Below, in pieces: positions 34,984-41,013 of a stretch of 64,000 nt of DNA. The stretch comes from Rhizobium sp. Q54 (lineage in GTDB: Bacteria; Pseudomonadota; Alphaproteobacteria; Micropepsales; Micropepsaceae), in assembly GCA_945882615.1 (NCBI GenBank), contig CAMCWK010000003.1, positions 62,001-126,000 on the forward strand. The letters are read 5' to 3'. The position numbers were made by a program, and so were the translations under genes. Numbering within the stretch: the stretch's first letter is position 1; every line of letters begins with the position of its first letter. The notes below the pieces were generated by a model. The model did not search any database, was not told where the DNA came from, and saw nothing but the letters and a program-made list of their open reading frames with translations.

Positions 34984-34987
<4 letters not shown>

Positions 34988-35577
34988 GCGAAGTCTTTCG
35001 CCAGCGCCGCGCGTGTCTCGGCACCCAGCACCGCCATATGGCCGTAATTCTTGTGGCTGAGGCCCAGCACCACACGCTCGCTGCCGCTTTTGAAGCGCGC
35101 GATCTGGTCCTTGGTCAGTTTGAAGCGCAGCCAGTGCACCGATGACGTCTTGCCGTCGGGTGTGGTGCGGTCATCATACTCGGTGGGCGTGGCATGGATG
35201 GTATCGCCACCGATTTCCAGGAACACGCTTTCCTCGATGCCGCCCAGGGTCAGCAAGGTGGCGCTGCGGCGCTTTTCGTCCTCGATCTCCAGCATCAGGG
35301 TGGCGATCAGTTCGTCGCCCTGCGGGATCAGGGGATTATAGGCCGCCAGTTCACCCGGAATCTGTTCCGCGCCGCCTTTTTCAATGCGCAGCATCTCCTG
35401 CACCTGCAGCCACATGGTGGCGTAATTCTCGAAATAGAAAGTCGCGAAGGGGCCGACTTCGATCCGCCGCAGCTTCTTTATCGGGATCAGGTTGGATTTC
35501 AGCGCCTTGCGTTGCTGGTCATATTCCGACGCCGACAGAATGTCGGCGGGTGTGATCTGGCGCGTCGCTTCAGGCAT
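34984..35577 (-). CDS. DUF3501 family protein
   Basis: A 197-residue soluble protein matching DUF3501 (QITPADILSASEYDQQRKALKSNLI, FYFENYATMWLQVQEML, EKGGAEQIPGELAAYNPLIP). The family is nearly always encoded next to rubrerythrin and a heterodisulfide-reductase-like Fe-S protein, exactly as here, and is presumed to take part in their peroxide or redox chemistry; its reaction is unknown. Start at 35577 is chosen because the conserved region begins directly after it. A family-B repeat separates it from the Fe-S gene upstream. Confidence 0.88.
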
Positions 35578-35592
35578 TTGCTTCAACCTCGG

Positions 35593-35662
35593 CCTCATGC
35601 TTCGACGGGCTCAGCATGAGAATCTATCCAATCTCCTCACCCTGAGCTTGTCGAAGGGCGAG
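35593..35662. repeat. Intergenic palindromic repeat, family B, copy 1
   Basis: Two hairpin units: CTCATGCTTCGACGGGCTCAGCATGAG and CTCACCCTGAGCTTGTCGAAGGGCGAG, i.e. variants of the GAGCTTGTCGAAG / CTTCGACAAGCTC core. Related copies lie at 38809-38880 and 51456-51518. Confidence 0.8.
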
Positions 35663-35671
35663 AATACAAAC

Positions 35672-37006
35672 TCAGTCTTTCTTCAATCCAAAGGCACGGG
35701 CCATGATCTGGATGGGATGTTCGGGTTCGCGCGCCGGCGTTTCGGTATGCGCCACGATATGCTGCGCCGCCAGCGGGCAGTCCGACACGATATGACCGCG
35801 CCCCTGCGTGTTGGCGGCGCGGAACACCGGACGGCCCACCTTGACGGCGACATCATGGGTCGGCTTGACCACGCCGAAGGTGCCGCCATGGCCCGAGCAG
35901 CGCTCGATCACATCCACCGGCGTTTCGGGGACCATCTTCAGCATCTCGGCTGCCTTGGGGCCCATATTCTGGGCCCGGGCGTGGCAGGCCAGATGCACGG
36001 TGACGCCTTCGGGCAGCGGCGTCATTCCGCCCGGCAGGCCGTCCTTCTTGGCGACATCGACGACATACTCGTCGATGTCATAAGTGTGTTCGGCGACCTT
36101 TTTCACATTCTCGTCGTCGGGCACGATCAGCGCCCATTCGAATTTCAGCATCAGCCCGCAGGACGCGGTCAGCGCCACGATGTCGTAGCCGTCATCGATC
36201 AGCTTCACCAATTCCTTGGAGACCTTGGTGGCGTTGGACGCGACCCGCGCCAGCTCGGCCTGTTCCAGGAACGGCATGCCGCAGCAGCCGGGATAGGCGA
36301 CTTTGGTTTCCACGCCGATATGGTTGAGCACGGCGCGCGCATCCATCCCGGTTTCCGGCTTGTTGTAATTGACGAAGCAGGTGGCATAGAGCGCCGCCTT
36401 GCGCCTGCCGAAGGCGGGCGCGGCGCTGTTGACCGTGCCTTCTTCATGCTTGTCGGCGGATACAAAAGTGCGGCTGTGGAATTTGGGCAGGGGCGCCTTG
36501 GCGTCGATGCCGGTGACTTTTTCCATCACGGGGCGGGTCAGCTTGTTGTCCACATTGCTGGCCCAGTTGACCAGCGGCGCCACGGGCCGCGCCATCGCGC
36601 CGTTGCGGTCCATCTCGGCCAGCTGCTTCTGGATGAACTCGCCCTTGTTCTTTCCCGCATTGGCAAAGCGGTGGCGCAGCATCAGGTGCGGGAAATCCAG
36701 CATGAAGGGATGCGGCGGCACGTAGGGGCACTTGGTCATGAAGCACATGTCGCAAAGCGTGCAGGCTTCGACCACCGGCTTGAAGTCTTCGGATTTCAGG
36801 CTTTCAACATCTTCGGCCGGGCTGTTGTCGATCAGGTCGAACAGGCGCGGGAAGGAATCGCAGAGATTGAAGCAGCGGCGGCAGCCATGACAGATGTCGA
36901 AGACGCGGCGCATCTCCGCATCCAGCTTCACCGGATCGGCGAAATCCGGGTCCTGCCACTTGATGATTTCGCGGGTGGGGGCCTCGAGGCTGCCTTCGCC
37001 GGTCAT
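35672..37006 (-). CDS. Heterodisulfide-reductase-related Fe-S protein (GlpC/HdrD-like)
   Basis: A 444-residue cytoplasmic redox protein. Two [4Fe-4S] ferredoxin motifs are near the N-terminus: CHGCRRCFNLC (about 34-44) and CTLCDMCFMTKCPY (about 76-89). The C-terminal half carries CCG-type domains (YPGCCGMPF and ERCSGHGGTFG), the non-cubane cluster or disulfide-handling sites of HdrB/GlpC proteins. It is the middle member of the conserved rubrerythrin / Fe-S / DUF3501 set, probably passing electrons to rubrerythrin for peroxide reduction. It lies 85 bp after rubrerythrin, with a terminator in the gap, so its expression may depend on read-through or its own promoter. Confidence 0.88.
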   Translation of the reverse strand: MTGEGSLEAPTREIIKWQDPDFADPVKLDAEMRRVFDICHGCRRCFNLCDSFPRLFDLIDNSPAEDVESLKSEDFKPVVEACTLCDMCFMTKCPYVPPHPFMLDFPHLMLRHRFANAGKNKGEFIQKQLAEMDRNGAMARPVAPLVNWASNVDNKLTRPVMEKVTGIDAKAPLPKFHSRTFVSADKHEEGTVNSAAPAFGRRKAALYATCFVNYNKPETGMDARAVLNHIGVETKVAYPGCCGMPFLEQAELARVASNATKVSKELVKLIDDGYDIVALTASCGLMLKFEWALIVPDDENVKKVAEHTYDIDEYVVDVAKKDGLPGGMTPLPEGVTVHLACHARAQNMGPKAAEMLKMVPETPVDVIERCSGHGGTFGVVKPTHDVAVKVGRPVFRAANTQGRGHIVSDCPLAAQHIVAHTETPAREPEHPIQIMARAFGLKKD

Positions 37007-37091: not shown

Positions 37092-37514
37092 TTACTTGCC
37101 CAGCGTATCGAGGGCCTTCTGGAAACGGCCGGCATGGCTCTTCTCGGCTTTCGCCAGGGTCTCGAACCAGTCGGCGATTTCGTCAAAGCCTTCGGTGCGC
37201 GCGGTCTTGGCCATGCCCGGATACATGTCGGTATATTCGTGGGTCTCGCCCGCGATCGACGCCTTCAGGTTGGCGTCGGTGGCGCCGATCGGCTCGCCGG
37301 TGGCCGGATCGCCGACTTCTTCCAGATATTCCAGATGGCCGTGGGCGTGGCCGGTTTCGCCTTCCGCGGTGGAGCGGAACACGGCGGCGACATCGTTATG
37401 GCCTTCGACGTCGGCCTTCTGCGCGAAATAGAGATAGCGGCGGTTCGCCTGGCTTTCGCCCGCGAAGGCCTCTTTGAGATTTTCCCAGGTCTTGGTGTCT
37501 TTCAGTGCGGGCAT
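37092..37514 (-). CDS. Rubrerythrin-type ferritin-like diiron protein
   Basis: A 140-residue four-helix protein. The metal ligands of a ferritin-like diiron site are visible: Glu in [12 protein letters not shown], the ExxH of [11 protein letters not shown], Glu in [12 protein letters not shown] and ExxH-like [11 protein letters not shown]. The C-terminal rubredoxin domain of classical rubrerythrins is absent, so electrons must come from another protein, plausibly the adjacent Fe-S protein. Rubrerythrins reduce hydrogen peroxide. ATG at 37514 is chosen because GGAGAGG lies three bases upstream. An Irr-like operator is 62 bp upstream of the start. Confidence 0.93.
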
Positions 37515-37575
37515 GCGCCTCTCCATAAAACTTTCGGCGCAACACTGTTCCTGCCGCGGCCAGCTGTCAACGGGA

Positions 37576-37590
37576 TTAGAACGATTCTAA
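37576..37590. promoter_or_regulatory. Irr-box-like operator upstream of rubrerythrin
   Basis: TTAGAACGATTCTAA is a perfect TTAGAA-N3-TTCTAA inverted repeat. It matches the iron-control element recognised by Irr in alphaproteobacteria as I know it. It lies between irr and rubrerythrin and probably governs the latter. Confidence 0.75.
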
Positions 37591-37626
37591 ACTATGAGAA
37601 TGACTCGCAGGACGCGGTCTGCGGCG

Positions 37627-38061
37627 CTAGCTGCGCCGCACGCGCACGACAACGTCCACGCGGTCGACGGCAAGACCCGGCGGCGGCGCGGGAACGCCCG
37701 CCACCGCGATGGTTTCGCCCGGAATGTCGATCAGCATGCCTTCGCTCTCCAGGAAGAAATGCTGATGATCGCCGGTATTGGTATCGAAATAGCTGCGCGA
37801 GGAATCCACGATCACCTGGCGCAAAAGGCCCGCCTGGGTGAACTGATGCAGGGTGTTGTAGACCGTGGCCAGCGACACTTTCACGCCCGCGTCCGACACT
37901 TCATCATGCAGGCTTTCCGCCGTCACATGCCGGTCACAGGTCTTGAACAACAGGCTGGCCAGTTCGACCCGCTGGCGGGTTGGACGCAGGCCGGCATGGC
38001 GCAGCCGGGCCGTCGCGGCGGCGGTCATCTCCTTGGCGGATTCACGCAAAGTCTTGACCAT
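37627..38061 (-). CDS. irr: Iron response regulator Irr (Fur family)
   Basis: A 144-residue Fur-family DNA-binding protein. The winged-helix part has LRPTRQRVELASLLF, HVTAESLHDEV and SLATVYNTLHQFTQAGLL, and the dimer/metal part has FDTNTGDHQHFFLE. The CxxC zinc sites of Fur are missing, as in Irr. Irr controls iron and haem genes under iron limitation and is degraded or inactivated through haem. The cluster with fabA and the two TTAGAA-N3-TTCTAA sites supports Irr over Fur, PerR or Mur. ATG 38061 is favoured over the ATG nine codons upstream because the alignment with the family begins there. Divergent from fabA. Confidence 0.88.
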   Translation of the reverse strand: MVKTLRESAKEMTAAATARLRHAGLRPTRQRVELASLLFKTCDRHVTAESLHDEVSDAGVKVSLATVYNTLHQFTQAGLLRQVIVDSSRSYFDTNTGDHQHFFLESEGMLIDIPGETIAVAGVPAPPPGLAVDRVDVVVRVRRS

Positions 38062-38134
38062 GGGCCTTTGATCCTTTGGGGTTCGCAACCTGTGCGATTG
38101 TGGGCAACCCTGCTAAACTAGGCCACAATATATG

Positions 38135-38149
38135 TTAGAACGTTTCTAA
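38135..38149. promoter_or_regulatory. Irr-box-like operator between irr and fabA
   Basis: TTAGAACGTTTCTAA is again a perfect TTAGAA-N3-TTCTAA inverted repeat, differing from the rubrerythrin site only in the spacer. It is 74 bp from the irr start and 92 bp from the fabA start, so it could mediate irr autoregulation and fabA control. Confidence 0.75.
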
Positions 38150-38240
38150 GCAACAAGGGACGGGTTGGCGGTAGCCCATCTGCCGCTTTTGGGGTAGGGA
38201 ACCCCGAGGGAAACTCCAGAGTTTTCAAGGGATAGGAAAA

Positions 38241-38801
38241 GTGGACCAGCCGTTGCGGAAATCCAGTTTCGACCTTCAGGGCCTGTTGGCCTGCGCCCGC
38301 GGCGACCTGTTCGGTCCGGGCAACGCCCAGTTGCCCATGCCGCCCATGCTGATGTTCGACCGCATCACCACCATCACCGCCGATGGCGGCGAGGACGGCA
38401 AGGGTCAGGTGATCGCCGAATTCGATATCAACCCGGATCTGTGGTTCTTCAAATGCCATTTCGAAGGCGATCCGGTGATGCCCGGCTGCCTGGGTCTGGA
38501 TGCCTTGTGGCAGATGGTCGGATTCTTCCTGGGCTGGATGGGCGGGCAGGGACGCGGCCGCGCGCTGGGCGTGGACGAGGTCAAGTTCACCGGCATGGTG
38601 CTGCCCACCGCCAAGAAGATCACCTATATCGTCAATCTCAAGCGCGTGATCATGCGCAAGCTGGTGCTGGGCATTGCCGATGGCATCATGAAGGTGGACG
38701 GCAAAGTCATCTATGAAGCCAAGGGTCTGCGTGTCGGCCTGTTCACCGATGCGGCCGCGGCCCTGGCGGCACAGGGCAGCAAGGCGCCAGCCTCCGCCTG
38801 A
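38241..38801 (+). CDS. fabA: 3-hydroxydecanoyl-[ACP] dehydratase/isomerase FabA
   Basis: A 186-residue enzyme that dehydrates beta-hydroxydecanoyl-ACP and isomerises it to cis-3-decenoyl-ACP, the branch point to unsaturated fatty acids. Catalytic His73 ([12 protein letters not shown]) and Asp87 (LGLDALWQ) are present. Length is slightly above E. coli FabA (172). It starts with GTG, with AGGAAAA just upstream. It is first of fabA-fabB-fabI on one strand and divergent from irr with an Irr-box-like site between them, which suggests iron-linked control. Confidence 0.96.
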
Positions 38802-38808
38802 AAAAATT

Positions 38809-38880
38809 CCTCACCCCTTCGACAAGCTCAGGGTGAGGACAAACTCCAATCCTCATGCTGAGCTTGTCGAAGCATGAGCG
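38809..38880. repeat. Intergenic palindromic repeat, family B, copy 2
   Basis: Two hairpins, CCTTCGACAAGCTCAGGG within CTCACC...GGTGAG arms and CTCATGCTGAGC with GAGCATG-type complement, sit between fabA and fabB and may weaken read-through. Related to 35593-35662 and 51456-51518. Confidence 0.85.
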
Positions 38881-38895: not shown

Positions 38896-40116
38896 ATGAG
38901 AAGAGTGGTCGTTACCGGCCTCGGCATCGTGTCCTCCATTGGCAACAACGCCGATGAAGTCACGCAGTCCCTGCGCCTGGCGCGTTCCGGCATTGTCGCG
39001 GCGGAAGATTATATTCGCCTGGGTTTTCGCTCCCAGGTGCATGGCAGCCTGAAGATAAACCTGGATGAAGTGGTGGACCGCCGCGCCCGGCGCTTCCAGG
39101 GCGACGGCGCCGGCTATTGCTGGGTGGCGATGAACCAGGCCATCGCCGATGCGGGTCTCGGCGAAGATCTGGTTTCCAATCCGCGCACCGGCCTCATTGC
39201 GGGGTCCGGTGGCCCCAGCACCAAGGCCATCGTCCAGGCCGCCGACATTACCCGCCAGAACAATTCTCCCAAGCGCGTCGGGCCTTTCGCGGTGCCCAAG
39301 GCGATGTCTTCGACCGTCAGCGCCAATCTTTCCACCTGGTTCAAGACCAAGGGCTACAATTATTCCATCTCCTCGGCCTGCTCGACCTCGGCCAACTGTA
39401 TCGGCAATGCCTTTGAACTGATCCAGTGGGGCAAGCAGGACGTAATGTTCGCGGGCGGCGGCGAGGAACTGGATTGGACGCTCAGCGAATTGTTCGACGC
39501 GATGGGCGCCATGTCGTCCAAGTTTAATGCCTCGCCCGAAAGCGCCAGCCGCGCCTATGACCTGGGCCGCGACGGCTTTGTGATTTCCGGCGGCGGTGGC
39601 ATTCTGGTGTTGGAAGAGCTGGAACACGCCAAGGCGCGCGGCGCGAAAATCTATGCCGAGCTGGTGGGCTATGGCGCCACCGCCGATGGCGCCGACATGG
39701 TCGCCCCGTCGGGCGAGGGCGCGGTGCGCTGCATGCAGATGGCGCTGGAAGGCGTGAAAGCGCCGGTGGACTACATCAATCCGCACGCCACCTCGACACC
39801 GGTTGGCGACATTCCCGAAATCAACGCCATCAAGACGGTGTTTGGCGCCAAGACCCCGCCGATCAGCGCCACCAAGTCGCTGACCGGTCACAGCCCGGGC
39901 GCGGCCGGCGTGCATGAGGCGATCTACACGCTGCTGATGATGAAGAACAACTTCATCTGCGAAAGCGCCAATATCCAGATCCTCGATCCGGCCGTCGAAG
40001 GCGCCAATATCGTGCGCCAGCGCATCGACAACGCCCAGATCAATGTCGCTTTGTCCAACAGCTTCGGCTTTGGCGGCACCAACGCCTCGCTGGTCTTCCA
40101 GCGTTTTGAGAACTGA
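38896..40116 (+). CDS. fabB: 3-oxoacyl-[ACP] synthase I FabB
   Basis: A 406-residue condensing enzyme that elongates acyl-ACP with malonyl-ACP and is needed for unsaturated fatty acids. The nucleophile Cys162 ([12 protein letters not shown]) and the two His residues ([11 protein letters not shown] near 298 and [11 protein letters not shown] near 333) form the Cys-His-His site. The C-terminal [11 protein letters not shown] motif is intact. FabB rather than FabF is supported by its place after fabA and by its length. Followed 39 bp later by fabI. Confidence 0.95.
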
Positions 40117-40155
40117 TGTCCCAGAATGGAACAGAAAACCCCGCGGGATCACATC

Positions 40156-41013
40156 ATGGCTGAGGCCAAAACGGGACTGATGGCCGGCAAGCGCGGCCTG
40201 ATCATGGGGGTGGCGAACGACCATTCCATCGCCTGGGGCATCGCCCAGATGCTGGCCTCGCAGGGTGCGGAGATCGCCTTTACCTATCAGGGTGACGCCC
40301 AGGCCAAGCGGTTAAAGCCGCTGGCGGCCTCGATCGGCTCGTCCATCGTGCTGCACGCCGATGTCGAAAGCGACGAACAGCTCGACGCCGTCTTCGCCGC
40401 CCTGAAGAAGGAATGGGGCACTATCGACTTCCTGGTTCACTCCCTGGCCTTTTCCGATCGTGACGAACTCAAGGGCCGCTACGTCGATACCAGCCGCGTC
40501 AACTTCGCCAAAACCCTCGATATTTCCTGCTATTCCTTCACCGCCGTCGCCAACCGCGCCGCCAAGATGATGACCAGGGGCGGCAGCCTGGTAACCTTGT
40601 CCTATCTCGGCGCCCAGCGCGTCATGCCCAACTACAACGTCATGGGAATTGCAAAGGCGGCGCTGGAAGCCAGTGTCCGCTATCTCGCGGCCGATCTGGG
40701 CCGCGACAATATCCGCGTCAATGCCATCTCCGCCGGGCCAATGCGCACCCTGGCGGGCGCGGCCGTGGGTGATGCCCGCACCGTGTTCAAATGGAACAAG
40801 GCGCATGCCCCGCTCAAGCGAACCGTGGAACTTAACCATGTCGGCGGCGCGGCATTGTACTTGCTTAGTGACCTGGCAGGTGGTGTCACCGGCGAAATTC
40901 ATTTCGTCGACTCCGGCTTCAACGTGATCGGCATGCCGCCGACCGCGGATCTGAACGGATGGACTCCGCCCGAGAATGGCCAGGAGCATCCCGATGGGCG
41001 TGCGGATTCATGA
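40156..41013 (+). CDS. fabI: Enoyl-[ACP] reductase FabI
   Basis: A 285-residue NAD(P)H-dependent reductase completing each elongation cycle. The cofactor site GLIMGVANDHSIAWGIA and the catalytic Tyr150, Tyr160 and Lys167 (LSYLG and YNVMGIAK, Y-x6-K) are present. An in-frame ATG ten codons upstream (40126) exists, but the conserved sequence starts after 40156. It is third in the fab set and its last 20 bp overlap the start of the DUF4893 gene, implying translational coupling. FabI is the target of triclosan-type inhibitors. Confidence 0.94.
   Translation: MAEAKTGLMAGKRGLIMGVANDHSIAWGIAQMLASQGAEIAFTYQGDAQAKRLKPLAASIGSSIVLHADVESDEQLDAVFAALKKEWGTIDFLVHSLAFSDRDELKGRYVDTSRVNFAKTLDISCYSFTAVANRAAKMMTRGGSLVTLSYLGAQRVMPNYNVMGIAKAALEASVRYLAADLGRDNIRVNAISAGPMRTLAGAAVGDARTVFKWNKAHAPLKRTVELNHVGGAALYLLSDLAGGVTGEIHFVDSGFNVIGMPPTADLNGWTPPENGQEHPDGRADS

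What the first reader, a model, noticed from the sequence alone, without database searches (positions are those of the whole stretch)
37576..38149. Two matching Irr-type operators linking rubrerythrin, irr and fabA
TTAGAACGATTCTAA and TTAGAACGTTTCTAA flank irr. This predicts Irr autoregulation, control of rubrerythrin, and iron-responsive control of unsaturated fatty-acid synthesis through fabA. The last point is the less expected one.
Basis: partly seen in the sequence, partly recalled or inferred. Interest (0 to 1): 0.55.

Follow-up and report, generated by a model that had tools for sequence, protein, structure and literature searches.

The report
Irr operators on peroxide-defence genes
Two DNA switches beside the iron regulator gene irr are real and strongly conserved, and matching switches sit in front of hydrogen-peroxide-destroying enzymes in the same bacteria, so this regulator probably controls a small peroxide-defence gene set, with a membrane-lipid operon perhaps attached to it in this lineage.

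Summary
TTAGAACGATTCTAA (37576-37590) and TTAGAACGTTTCTAA (38135-38149) match TTAGAA-N3-TTCTAA perfectly, in front of rubrerythrin (rbr) and between divergent irr and fabA. The genome has three perfect sites; the third precedes katG, and a one-mismatch site precedes ahpC. In 60 genomes of the genus there are 124 perfect sites against 4 for the reversed pattern: 94 at the irr locus, 12 at katG, 13 at ahpC, 5 elsewhere. The rbr site is old: 21 of 44 irr-rbr gaps outside the family have it within one mismatch. The irr-fabA site is probably derived: 56 of 56 in this genus and 6 of 7 in a related genus, but 0 of 16 in other genera of the family and 0 of 54 elsewhere, although irr and fabA are neighbours there too. 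It overlaps the predicted irr promoter (autorepression well supported) and lies just downstream of a fabA promoter predicted in 39 of 56 (fabA control plausible, unproven). OxyR is recognisable in only 2-3 of 60 genus genomes. This is a new variant of the known Irr/ICE system. Binding, signal and sign are untested.

The parts
37576..37590 (.). ICE/Irr-type operator 1, TTAGAACGATTCTAA, in the rbr promoter
   Evidence: 0 mismatches; before rbr in the genus, 47 of 47 distinct contexts with a site of at most one mismatch have TTGAC 4-6 nt 3' of it
37565..37570 (-). predicted rbr -35 TTGACA, 5 nt 3' of operator 1 in rbr sense
   Evidence: TTGAC within 14 nt in 47 of 47 contexts, base shuffles mean 0.37, max 3
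37542..37547 (-). predicted rbr -10 CAGTGT, 17-nt spacer (weak match; inference)
37595..37609 (.). Fur-like 7-1-7 box TGAGAATGACTCGCA beside operator 1; regulator unknown
   Evidence: 24 of 47 rbr contexts have such a box with 3 mismatches or fewer, 17 of them at the same offset
37092..37514 (-). rbr, rubrerythrin without rubredoxin domain (ORF opens at 37526; homologues and a GGAG favour the ATG at 37514)
35672..37006 (-). GlpC-like Fe-S/CCG protein, same strand directly after rbr, possible operon member
   Evidence: same order in the rbr-bearing genus loci
34984..35598 (-). DUF3501 protein, same strand, possible operon member
37627..38061 (-). irr (ATG start at 38061; the ORF list opened it at a TTG, 38088)
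   Evidence: NCBIfam NF045678 208.8 bits and NF045677 191.8 bits, both over cut-off
38135..38149 (.). ICE/Irr-type operator 2, TTAGAACGTTTCTAA, between irr and fabA
   Evidence: 0 mismatches; 56 of 56 distinct genus intergenics (54 perfect, 2 with one mismatch)
38148..38153 (-). predicted irr -35 TTGCTT, overlapping operator 2 by two bases
   Evidence: TTG at this offset in 20 of 56
38125..38130 (-). predicted irr -10 TATTGT
   Evidence: TAnnnT at exactly this offset in 28 of 56, second-best offset 13 of 56; best offset in any of 500 base shuffles 6
38111..38119 (+). predicted fabA extended -10, TGCTAAACT (operator 2 then starts near +10); the -35 is poor in this genome
   Evidence: TGCTANNNT upstream of the site in 39 of 56, base shuffles mean 0.39, max 3
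38241..38801 (+). fabA (GTG start)
   Evidence: TIGR01749 289.6 bits, cut-off 238.15
38896..40116 (+). fabB
   Evidence: NF005935 710.2 bits, cut-off 630
40126..41013 (+). fabI-type enoyl-ACP reductase
   Evidence: NF005078 442.2 bits, just under its cut-off of 446; Pfam enoyl-ACP reductase 299.4 bits

Best explanation
Both sites are operators of the Irr protein encoded between them. Together with sites before katG and ahpC they form a small Irr regulon devoted mainly to peroxide removal (diiron rubrerythrin, haem catalase-peroxidase KatG, thiol peroxidase AhpC) and to irr itself. A dimer at 38135-38149 occupies the promoter of irr and the start of the fabA transcript, so it represses irr and, less certainly, fabA-fabB-fabI. 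At katG (some species) and ahpC the sites overlap promoter elements, which also points to repression; at rbr the site lies just upstream of the -35, where repression and activation are both possible. When Irr is inactivated (haem or metal at its H-x-H, or oxidation) the repressed genes are released. Shown here: sites, conservation, neighbouring genes. Predicted from sequence: promoter geometry. Inferred: binding, sign of control, signal, effect on fabA.
For: Irr family call. 124 perfect sites against 4 reversed-pattern controls in 60 genus genomes. 25 of the 30 sites away from the irr locus precede katG (12) or ahpC (13). The 12 specified bases of operator 2 average 99.7% identity against 45% in flanks. 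Predicted geometry: ICE between -35 and -10 of irr (TAnnnT at one offset in 28 of 56); -35 match with at most one mismatch 10-11 nt 5' of the ICE in 11 of 14 ahpC contexts examined; ICE left arm as -10 in 5 of 17 katG contexts. No OxyR hit over 200 bits in 58 of 60 genus genomes, one of these 58 with two adjacent pieces. In R. sphaeroides purified Irr binds sites at mbfA and ccpA, both linked to oxidative-stress defence, and the irr mutant resists H2O2 (abstract start and passages of PMC3413700).
Against: No binding or expression data. The own ahpC site has one mismatch, and one-mismatch sites are at chance level by number. The irr-fabA site is missing (within one mismatch) in 70 of 70 divergent irr-fabA pairs outside the two genera, so fabA does not generally need it. 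G013 carries a second fabABI copy with no site in about 320 bp upstream. The fabA-sense promoter is a prediction, absent in 17 of 56, with a poor -35 in the window. The irr promoter elements are not found by either geometry in 16 of 56. Four of 17 katG contexts fit neither geometry. Of the 30 outlying sites 3 are at other genes and 2 at contig edges. The rbr operator position does not give the sign. Lack of OxyR is not special to this genus: 7 of 8 non-genus genomes and 2 of 7 also show no hit over 200 bits. In R. sphaeroides Irr did not bind upstream of katE and had no major role in iron-dependent mbfA expression (PMC3413700).
Confidence: 0.7

Rival explanations
1. fabA is a bystander: operator 2 serves irr autoregulation only, and irr happens to stand divergent to fabABI, as it does across much of the class.
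For: irr-fabA divergence is common while the ICE between them is not: 0 of 54 outside the family. The site overlaps predicted irr promoter elements. A second fabA copy in G013 lacks it.
Against: In 39 of 56 genomes an extended -10 in fabA sense stands 22-38 nt (37 of the 39: 22-29) before the site, so a bound dimer would start at about +7 to +14 of that transcript in these 37.
Confidence: 0.4
2. Irr activates rbr rather than repressing it, so operator position decides the sign and the regulon has two arms.
For: 47 of 47 rbr contexts keep the site 4-6 nt upstream of TTGAC. A review states that Irr represses or activates depending on ICE location (passages of PMC7762939).
Against: katG in some species has one site upstream of the -35 and another overlapping the -10 (L125, L253, L260), which fits joint repression. 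The review reports that Irr represses iron storage systems in low iron.
Confidence: 0.3
3. Another regulator, for example the second Fur-family protein (C8:26562-26849) or one that reads the neighbouring Fur-like box, is the main ligand of the sites.
For: A second Fur-family protein is encoded in the genome. A Fur-like 7-1-7 box abuts the rbr operator in 24 of 47 contexts.
Against: The sites lie beside irr in genome after genome, and Irr is reported to bind ICE elements in other species.
Confidence: 0.07
4. The two palindromes are chance or shared descent without function.
For: Two matches within 2 mismatches occur in 2 of 100 shuffled windows.
Against: 124 against 4 in 60 genomes; core identity 99.7% against 45% in flanks; placement before peroxidase genes.
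Confidence: 0.01

Closest known systems
Irr / ICE regulation of Rhodobacter sphaeroides (mbfA, ccpA)
   Same: Irr of the Fur superfamily, two predicted sites, both genes with a function in oxidative-stress defence, irr mutant resists H2O2 (PMC3413700, abstract start and passages)
   Different: Targets there are mbfA and cytochrome c peroxidase; no Irr binding upstream of katE was found; OxyR is present and controls katE
Irr / ICE regulation of Bradyrhizobium japonicum and rhizobia
   Same: ICE-type operators, rubrerythrin-like and bacterioferritin genes as targets, repression or activation by location (passages of PMC7762939 and PMC3413700)
   Different: There a larger regulon (23 predicted Irr sites in B. 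japonicum, cited in PMC3413700) and in B. japonicum a haem regulatory motif; here 0-4 perfect sites per genome (56 of 60 have at least one) and no Cys-Pro in the window's protein
Autoregulated irr of Brucella abortus
   Same: Irr controls its own expression (only a cited title seen, in the reference list of PMC2864753)
   Different: Outside this family no TTAGAAN3TTCTAA within one mismatch was found between irr and fabA (0 of 54)
PerR peroxide regulons
   Same: A Fur-superfamily repressor set over katG, ahpC and rubrerythrin (PerR regulon content is recalled)
   Different: The protein scores far below PerR cut-offs and above Irr cut-offs

Membership tests
Irr (NCBIfam NF045678 / NF045677) | score over the curated equivalog cut-off | tested here: met
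   208.8 (cut-off 150) and 191.8 (cut-off 170) bits
Irr (NCBIfam NF045678 / NF045677) | conserved H-x-H haem site | tested here: met
   H99 and H101 invariant in a 12-row alignment; role as haem site from PMC7762939
Irr (NCBIfam NF045678 / NF045677) | Cys-Pro haem regulatory motif (B. japonicum type; not defining for all Irr; that it is Cys-Pro is recalled) | tested here: not met
   no Cys-Pro in the protein, its single Cys is followed by Asp
Irr (NCBIfam NF045678 / NF045677) | binds haem, binds ICE as apoprotein | not testable with these tools
   needs purified protein
ICE operator | TTAGAA-N3-TTCTAA near promoters of genes of an Irr-bearing genome | tested here: met
   the consensus itself is recalled and from the finding, no passage that I saw printed it
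PerR | score over PerR cut-offs | tested here: not met
   best PerR models 65.6, 52.8, 44.5 bits against cut-offs 250, 200, 180
Rubrerythrin | diiron ferritin-like domain | tested here: met
   Pfam PF02915 102.1 bits; closest solved chain 4di0_A, E 1.7e-70
Rubrerythrin | C-terminal rubredoxin domain of classical rubrerythrin (that this is the missing part is recalled) | tested here: not met
   matches positions 1-144 of 194, 134 bits, cut-off 200
MbfA (membrane-bound ferritin) | ferritin-like domain fused to a VIT1-type membrane domain | tested here: not met
   144 aa, only rubrerythrin/ferritin-like matches

The most novel reading that the evidence does not exclude
In this genus Irr has become, or has stayed, the main peroxide-defence regulator in place of OxyR, working like PerR without being PerR. 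In the common ancestor of this genus and a related genus of the family an Irr operator then arose between irr and fabA, placing unsaturated fatty-acid synthesis under the same switch, while another genus of the family keeps a different single-copy palindrome at the same spot.
Probability: 0.3. Interest if true: 0.6.

Novelty: new variant of a known kind. Interest (0 to 1): 0.45.

Why it matters
Irr is usually presented as an iron and haem regulator of rhizobia and other Alphaproteobacteria. A compact Irr regulon with three chemically different peroxidases, in a genus mostly without a recognisable OxyR, would show that the same protein family can run peroxide defence, and would separate what is old in the system (irr with rubrerythrin) from what looks new (the operator at fabA). 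It gives a clean case of operator gain next to a conserved gene pair, testable by comparing related genera.

Tried and rejected
Rejected: chance origin. Rejected: 'iron regulon' in the broad sense, since 25 of 30 outlying perfect sites lie at katG or ahpC, 3 at other genes that do not look like iron uptake, and 2 at contig edges that I could not assign. Rejected as proof for fabA: synteny alone, because irr and fabA are divergent neighbours in many Alphaproteobacteria without the site. Looked at and set aside: loss of sites in genomes without irr. In G003, G018 and G073 there is no perfect site and no fabA hit; irr was searched only in G003 and G018, where the only match is the distant Fur-family paralogue. 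These genomes are 88-91% complete, so a missing contig explains this equally well. G064 has irr and fabA but no perfect site; a one-mismatch site stands between them. Led nowhere: literature searches dominated by faba bean and irrigation or by unrelated repeats.

Corrections made on the way: the site of G011 (L044), taken for the irr locus when I counted for my notebook, lies at ahpC, so the split is 94 and 30 (recounted), not 95 and 29.

Full report
What is there. The two 15-mers are at the stated coordinates and are perfect matches to TTAGAANNNTTCTAA. Gene order on the minus strand is irr (37627-38061), then rbr (37092-37514), then a GlpC-like Fe-S protein and a DUF3501 protein; on the plus strand fabA, fabB and a fabI-type gene. 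The first site is in the rbr promoter; the second lies between the divergent irr and fabA.

More than chance. In the own genome three perfect sites stand against none for the reversed pattern; with up to one mismatch it is four against four, so only perfect sites count by number. In 60 genomes of the genus (own included; drawn evenly from a larger group) there are 124 perfect sites against 4 for the reversed control; 56 of 60 genomes have at least one. Adding up the places, 94 lie at the irr locus (one of them, in G069, before a katG next to irr) and 30 elsewhere. Of those 30, 12 lie before katG, 13 before ahpC, 2 beside a thiamine-diphosphate enzyme that I would call PoxB-like (recalled, not tested), 1 beside an NHL-repeat-like gene (recalled name), and 2 at contig edges. 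In the own genome the third perfect site stands 64 bases before katG (contig C18) and a one-mismatch site before ahpC (contig C33); a near relative, G015, has a perfect site at ahpC.

Which genus. Contig G026:C244 has the same length, 79,290, as JARLIR010000126.1, titled Rhizomicrobium sp.; I take the genus to be Rhizomicrobium-like on that one title. Another contig of matching length (G015:C4, 174,830) carries the title Rhizobium sp. Q54, which I take for a misnomer.

Old and new. I compared gaps around irr in loci from other genomes (the 80 loci are the best of at least 587, so they lean to close relatives). Best match to the pattern of at most one mismatch: between irr and rbr in 21 of 44 loci outside the family (13 more with two mismatches), 9 of 15 in other genera of the family, 5 of 5 in the related genus g140 and 13 of 13 in the genus rows of that set. 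Between divergent irr and fabA: 0 of 54 outside, 0 of 16 in other genera of the family, 6 of 7 in g140, 16 of 16 in the genus rows of that set, and 56 of 56 distinct intergenics in the larger genus set (54 perfect, 2 with one mismatch). Locus L158, counted among the 54, probably belongs to the family. Dinucleotide shuffles of these intergenics reach one mismatch in at most 0.06% of cases. So the rbr operator looks ancestral and the fabA-side operator looks like a gain in an ancestor of g1 and g140; I built no tree. Caveat: a paper title says that Irr of Brucella abortus controls its own expression (seen), so other lineages may use sites that this pattern misses.

Promoter geometry (prediction; controls are base shuffles). 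rbr: TTGAC starts 4-6 nt after the site in 47 of 47 contexts, shuffles mean 0.37, max 3. ahpC: the site lies between -35 and -10; a -35 with at most one mismatch starts 10-11 nt before the site in 11 of 14 contexts examined, of 15 available. katG: 17 contexts, counting both sites where there are two; TTGAC follows the site in 8, in 5 the left arm of the site is itself the -10, and 4 fit neither. irr: TAnnnT at one offset after the site in 28 of 56, with 13 of 56 at a second offset, best offset in 500 shuffles 6; TTG four bases before the site in 20 of 56. An alternative geometry, TTGAC 33-36 nt upstream so that the site covers the start, fits 16 of 56; 4 fit both and 16 neither. fabA sense: TGCTANNNT within 40 nt upstream of the site in 39 of 56, shuffles mean 0.39 and max 3, none at two control positions; best -35 match 3.82 of 6 against 2.47 in shuffles; the site then starts at +7 to +14 of the predicted transcript in 37 of these 39. 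That block is absent in g140 (0 of 7) and the rest of the family (0 of 16) and present in 1 of 54 outside, so it is a genus feature. In the window itself the fabA -35 is poor.

Reading. Operators that overlap predicted promoter elements at irr, ahpC and part of katG point to repression. The rbr position leaves the sign open. Targets with diiron, haem and thiol chemistry do not look like iron sparing alone; a peroxide response fits better. OxyR is rarely there: with the NCBIfam OxyR model, 2 of 60 genus genomes have a hit over 200 bits (G035, G077), and G003 has two adjacent pieces of 116 and 102 bits. The same model gives 223-276 bits in 5 of 7 comparison genomes of other genera (none in two g144 genomes of the same family), but in only 1 of 8 non-genus genomes, so its lack is not special to this genus; no alphaproteobacterial hit in the tested genomes reaches the curated cut-off of 329. 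In G035 the OxyR-like gene lies beside a katG copy without a site of up to one mismatch. Against this reading: the signal is untested, and PerR-like behaviour is an analogy; the protein is Irr by score and not PerR.

Literature. Read in passages: PMC3413700 (R. sphaeroides Irr), PMC7762939 (review), PMC10374146 (Brucella DAP-seq; the words 'fab' and 'fatty acid' do not occur in its main text), PMC2864753, PMC10315480, PMC5587712. Rodionov 2006 and Rudolph 2006 are not held, so earlier predictions for katG, ahpC or fabA may exist there. In the listings I saw no title that reports Irr control of fabA, or of katG with ahpC; listings show only the best-ranked papers of one open-licence library.

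Noticed in passing
37595-37609: A Fur-like 7-1-7 palindrome TGAGAATGACTCGCA sits 19 bp (start to start) from the rbr operator; 24 of 47 genus contexts have such a box. Only two other places in the genome match the degenerate pattern, both near a DUF4198-like gene (recalled name).
   Followed up: partly
L275-L278, L282-L285, L288, L292 (genus g144), L158, L301-L307: Another genus of the family has a different conserved palindrome, AGTTTTGAATAACTCAAAACT type, between irr and fabA. Of 11 g144 genomes searched with a strict pattern, 7 have it, exactly once each; the other four carry close variants at the same place (L275, L283, L285, L292).
   Followed up: partly
   Followed up: no
L020, L027, L117: Two Irr-type sites 16 bp apart between irr and fabA (in L027 and L117 one of them has one mismatch).
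   Followed up: no
L125, L253, L260: katG promoters with two Irr-type sites 42-45 bp apart, one upstream of the predicted -35 and one on the predicted -10.
   Followed up: no
L068 (G030), L071 (G035): Two irr genes in tandem in G030; a second irr beside katG and an OxyR-like gene in G035.
   Followed up: no
38810-38879: An inverted repeat with TTCGACAAGCTCAG arms (38818, 38858) lies between fabA and fabB, REP-like (recalled); single arms also at 35642 and 51463.
   Followed up: no
34984-37006: GlpC-like and DUF3501 genes follow rbr on the same strand; the GlpC-like gene keeps this place in the rbr-bearing genus loci, so the rbr operator may control a longer operon.
   Followed up: partly
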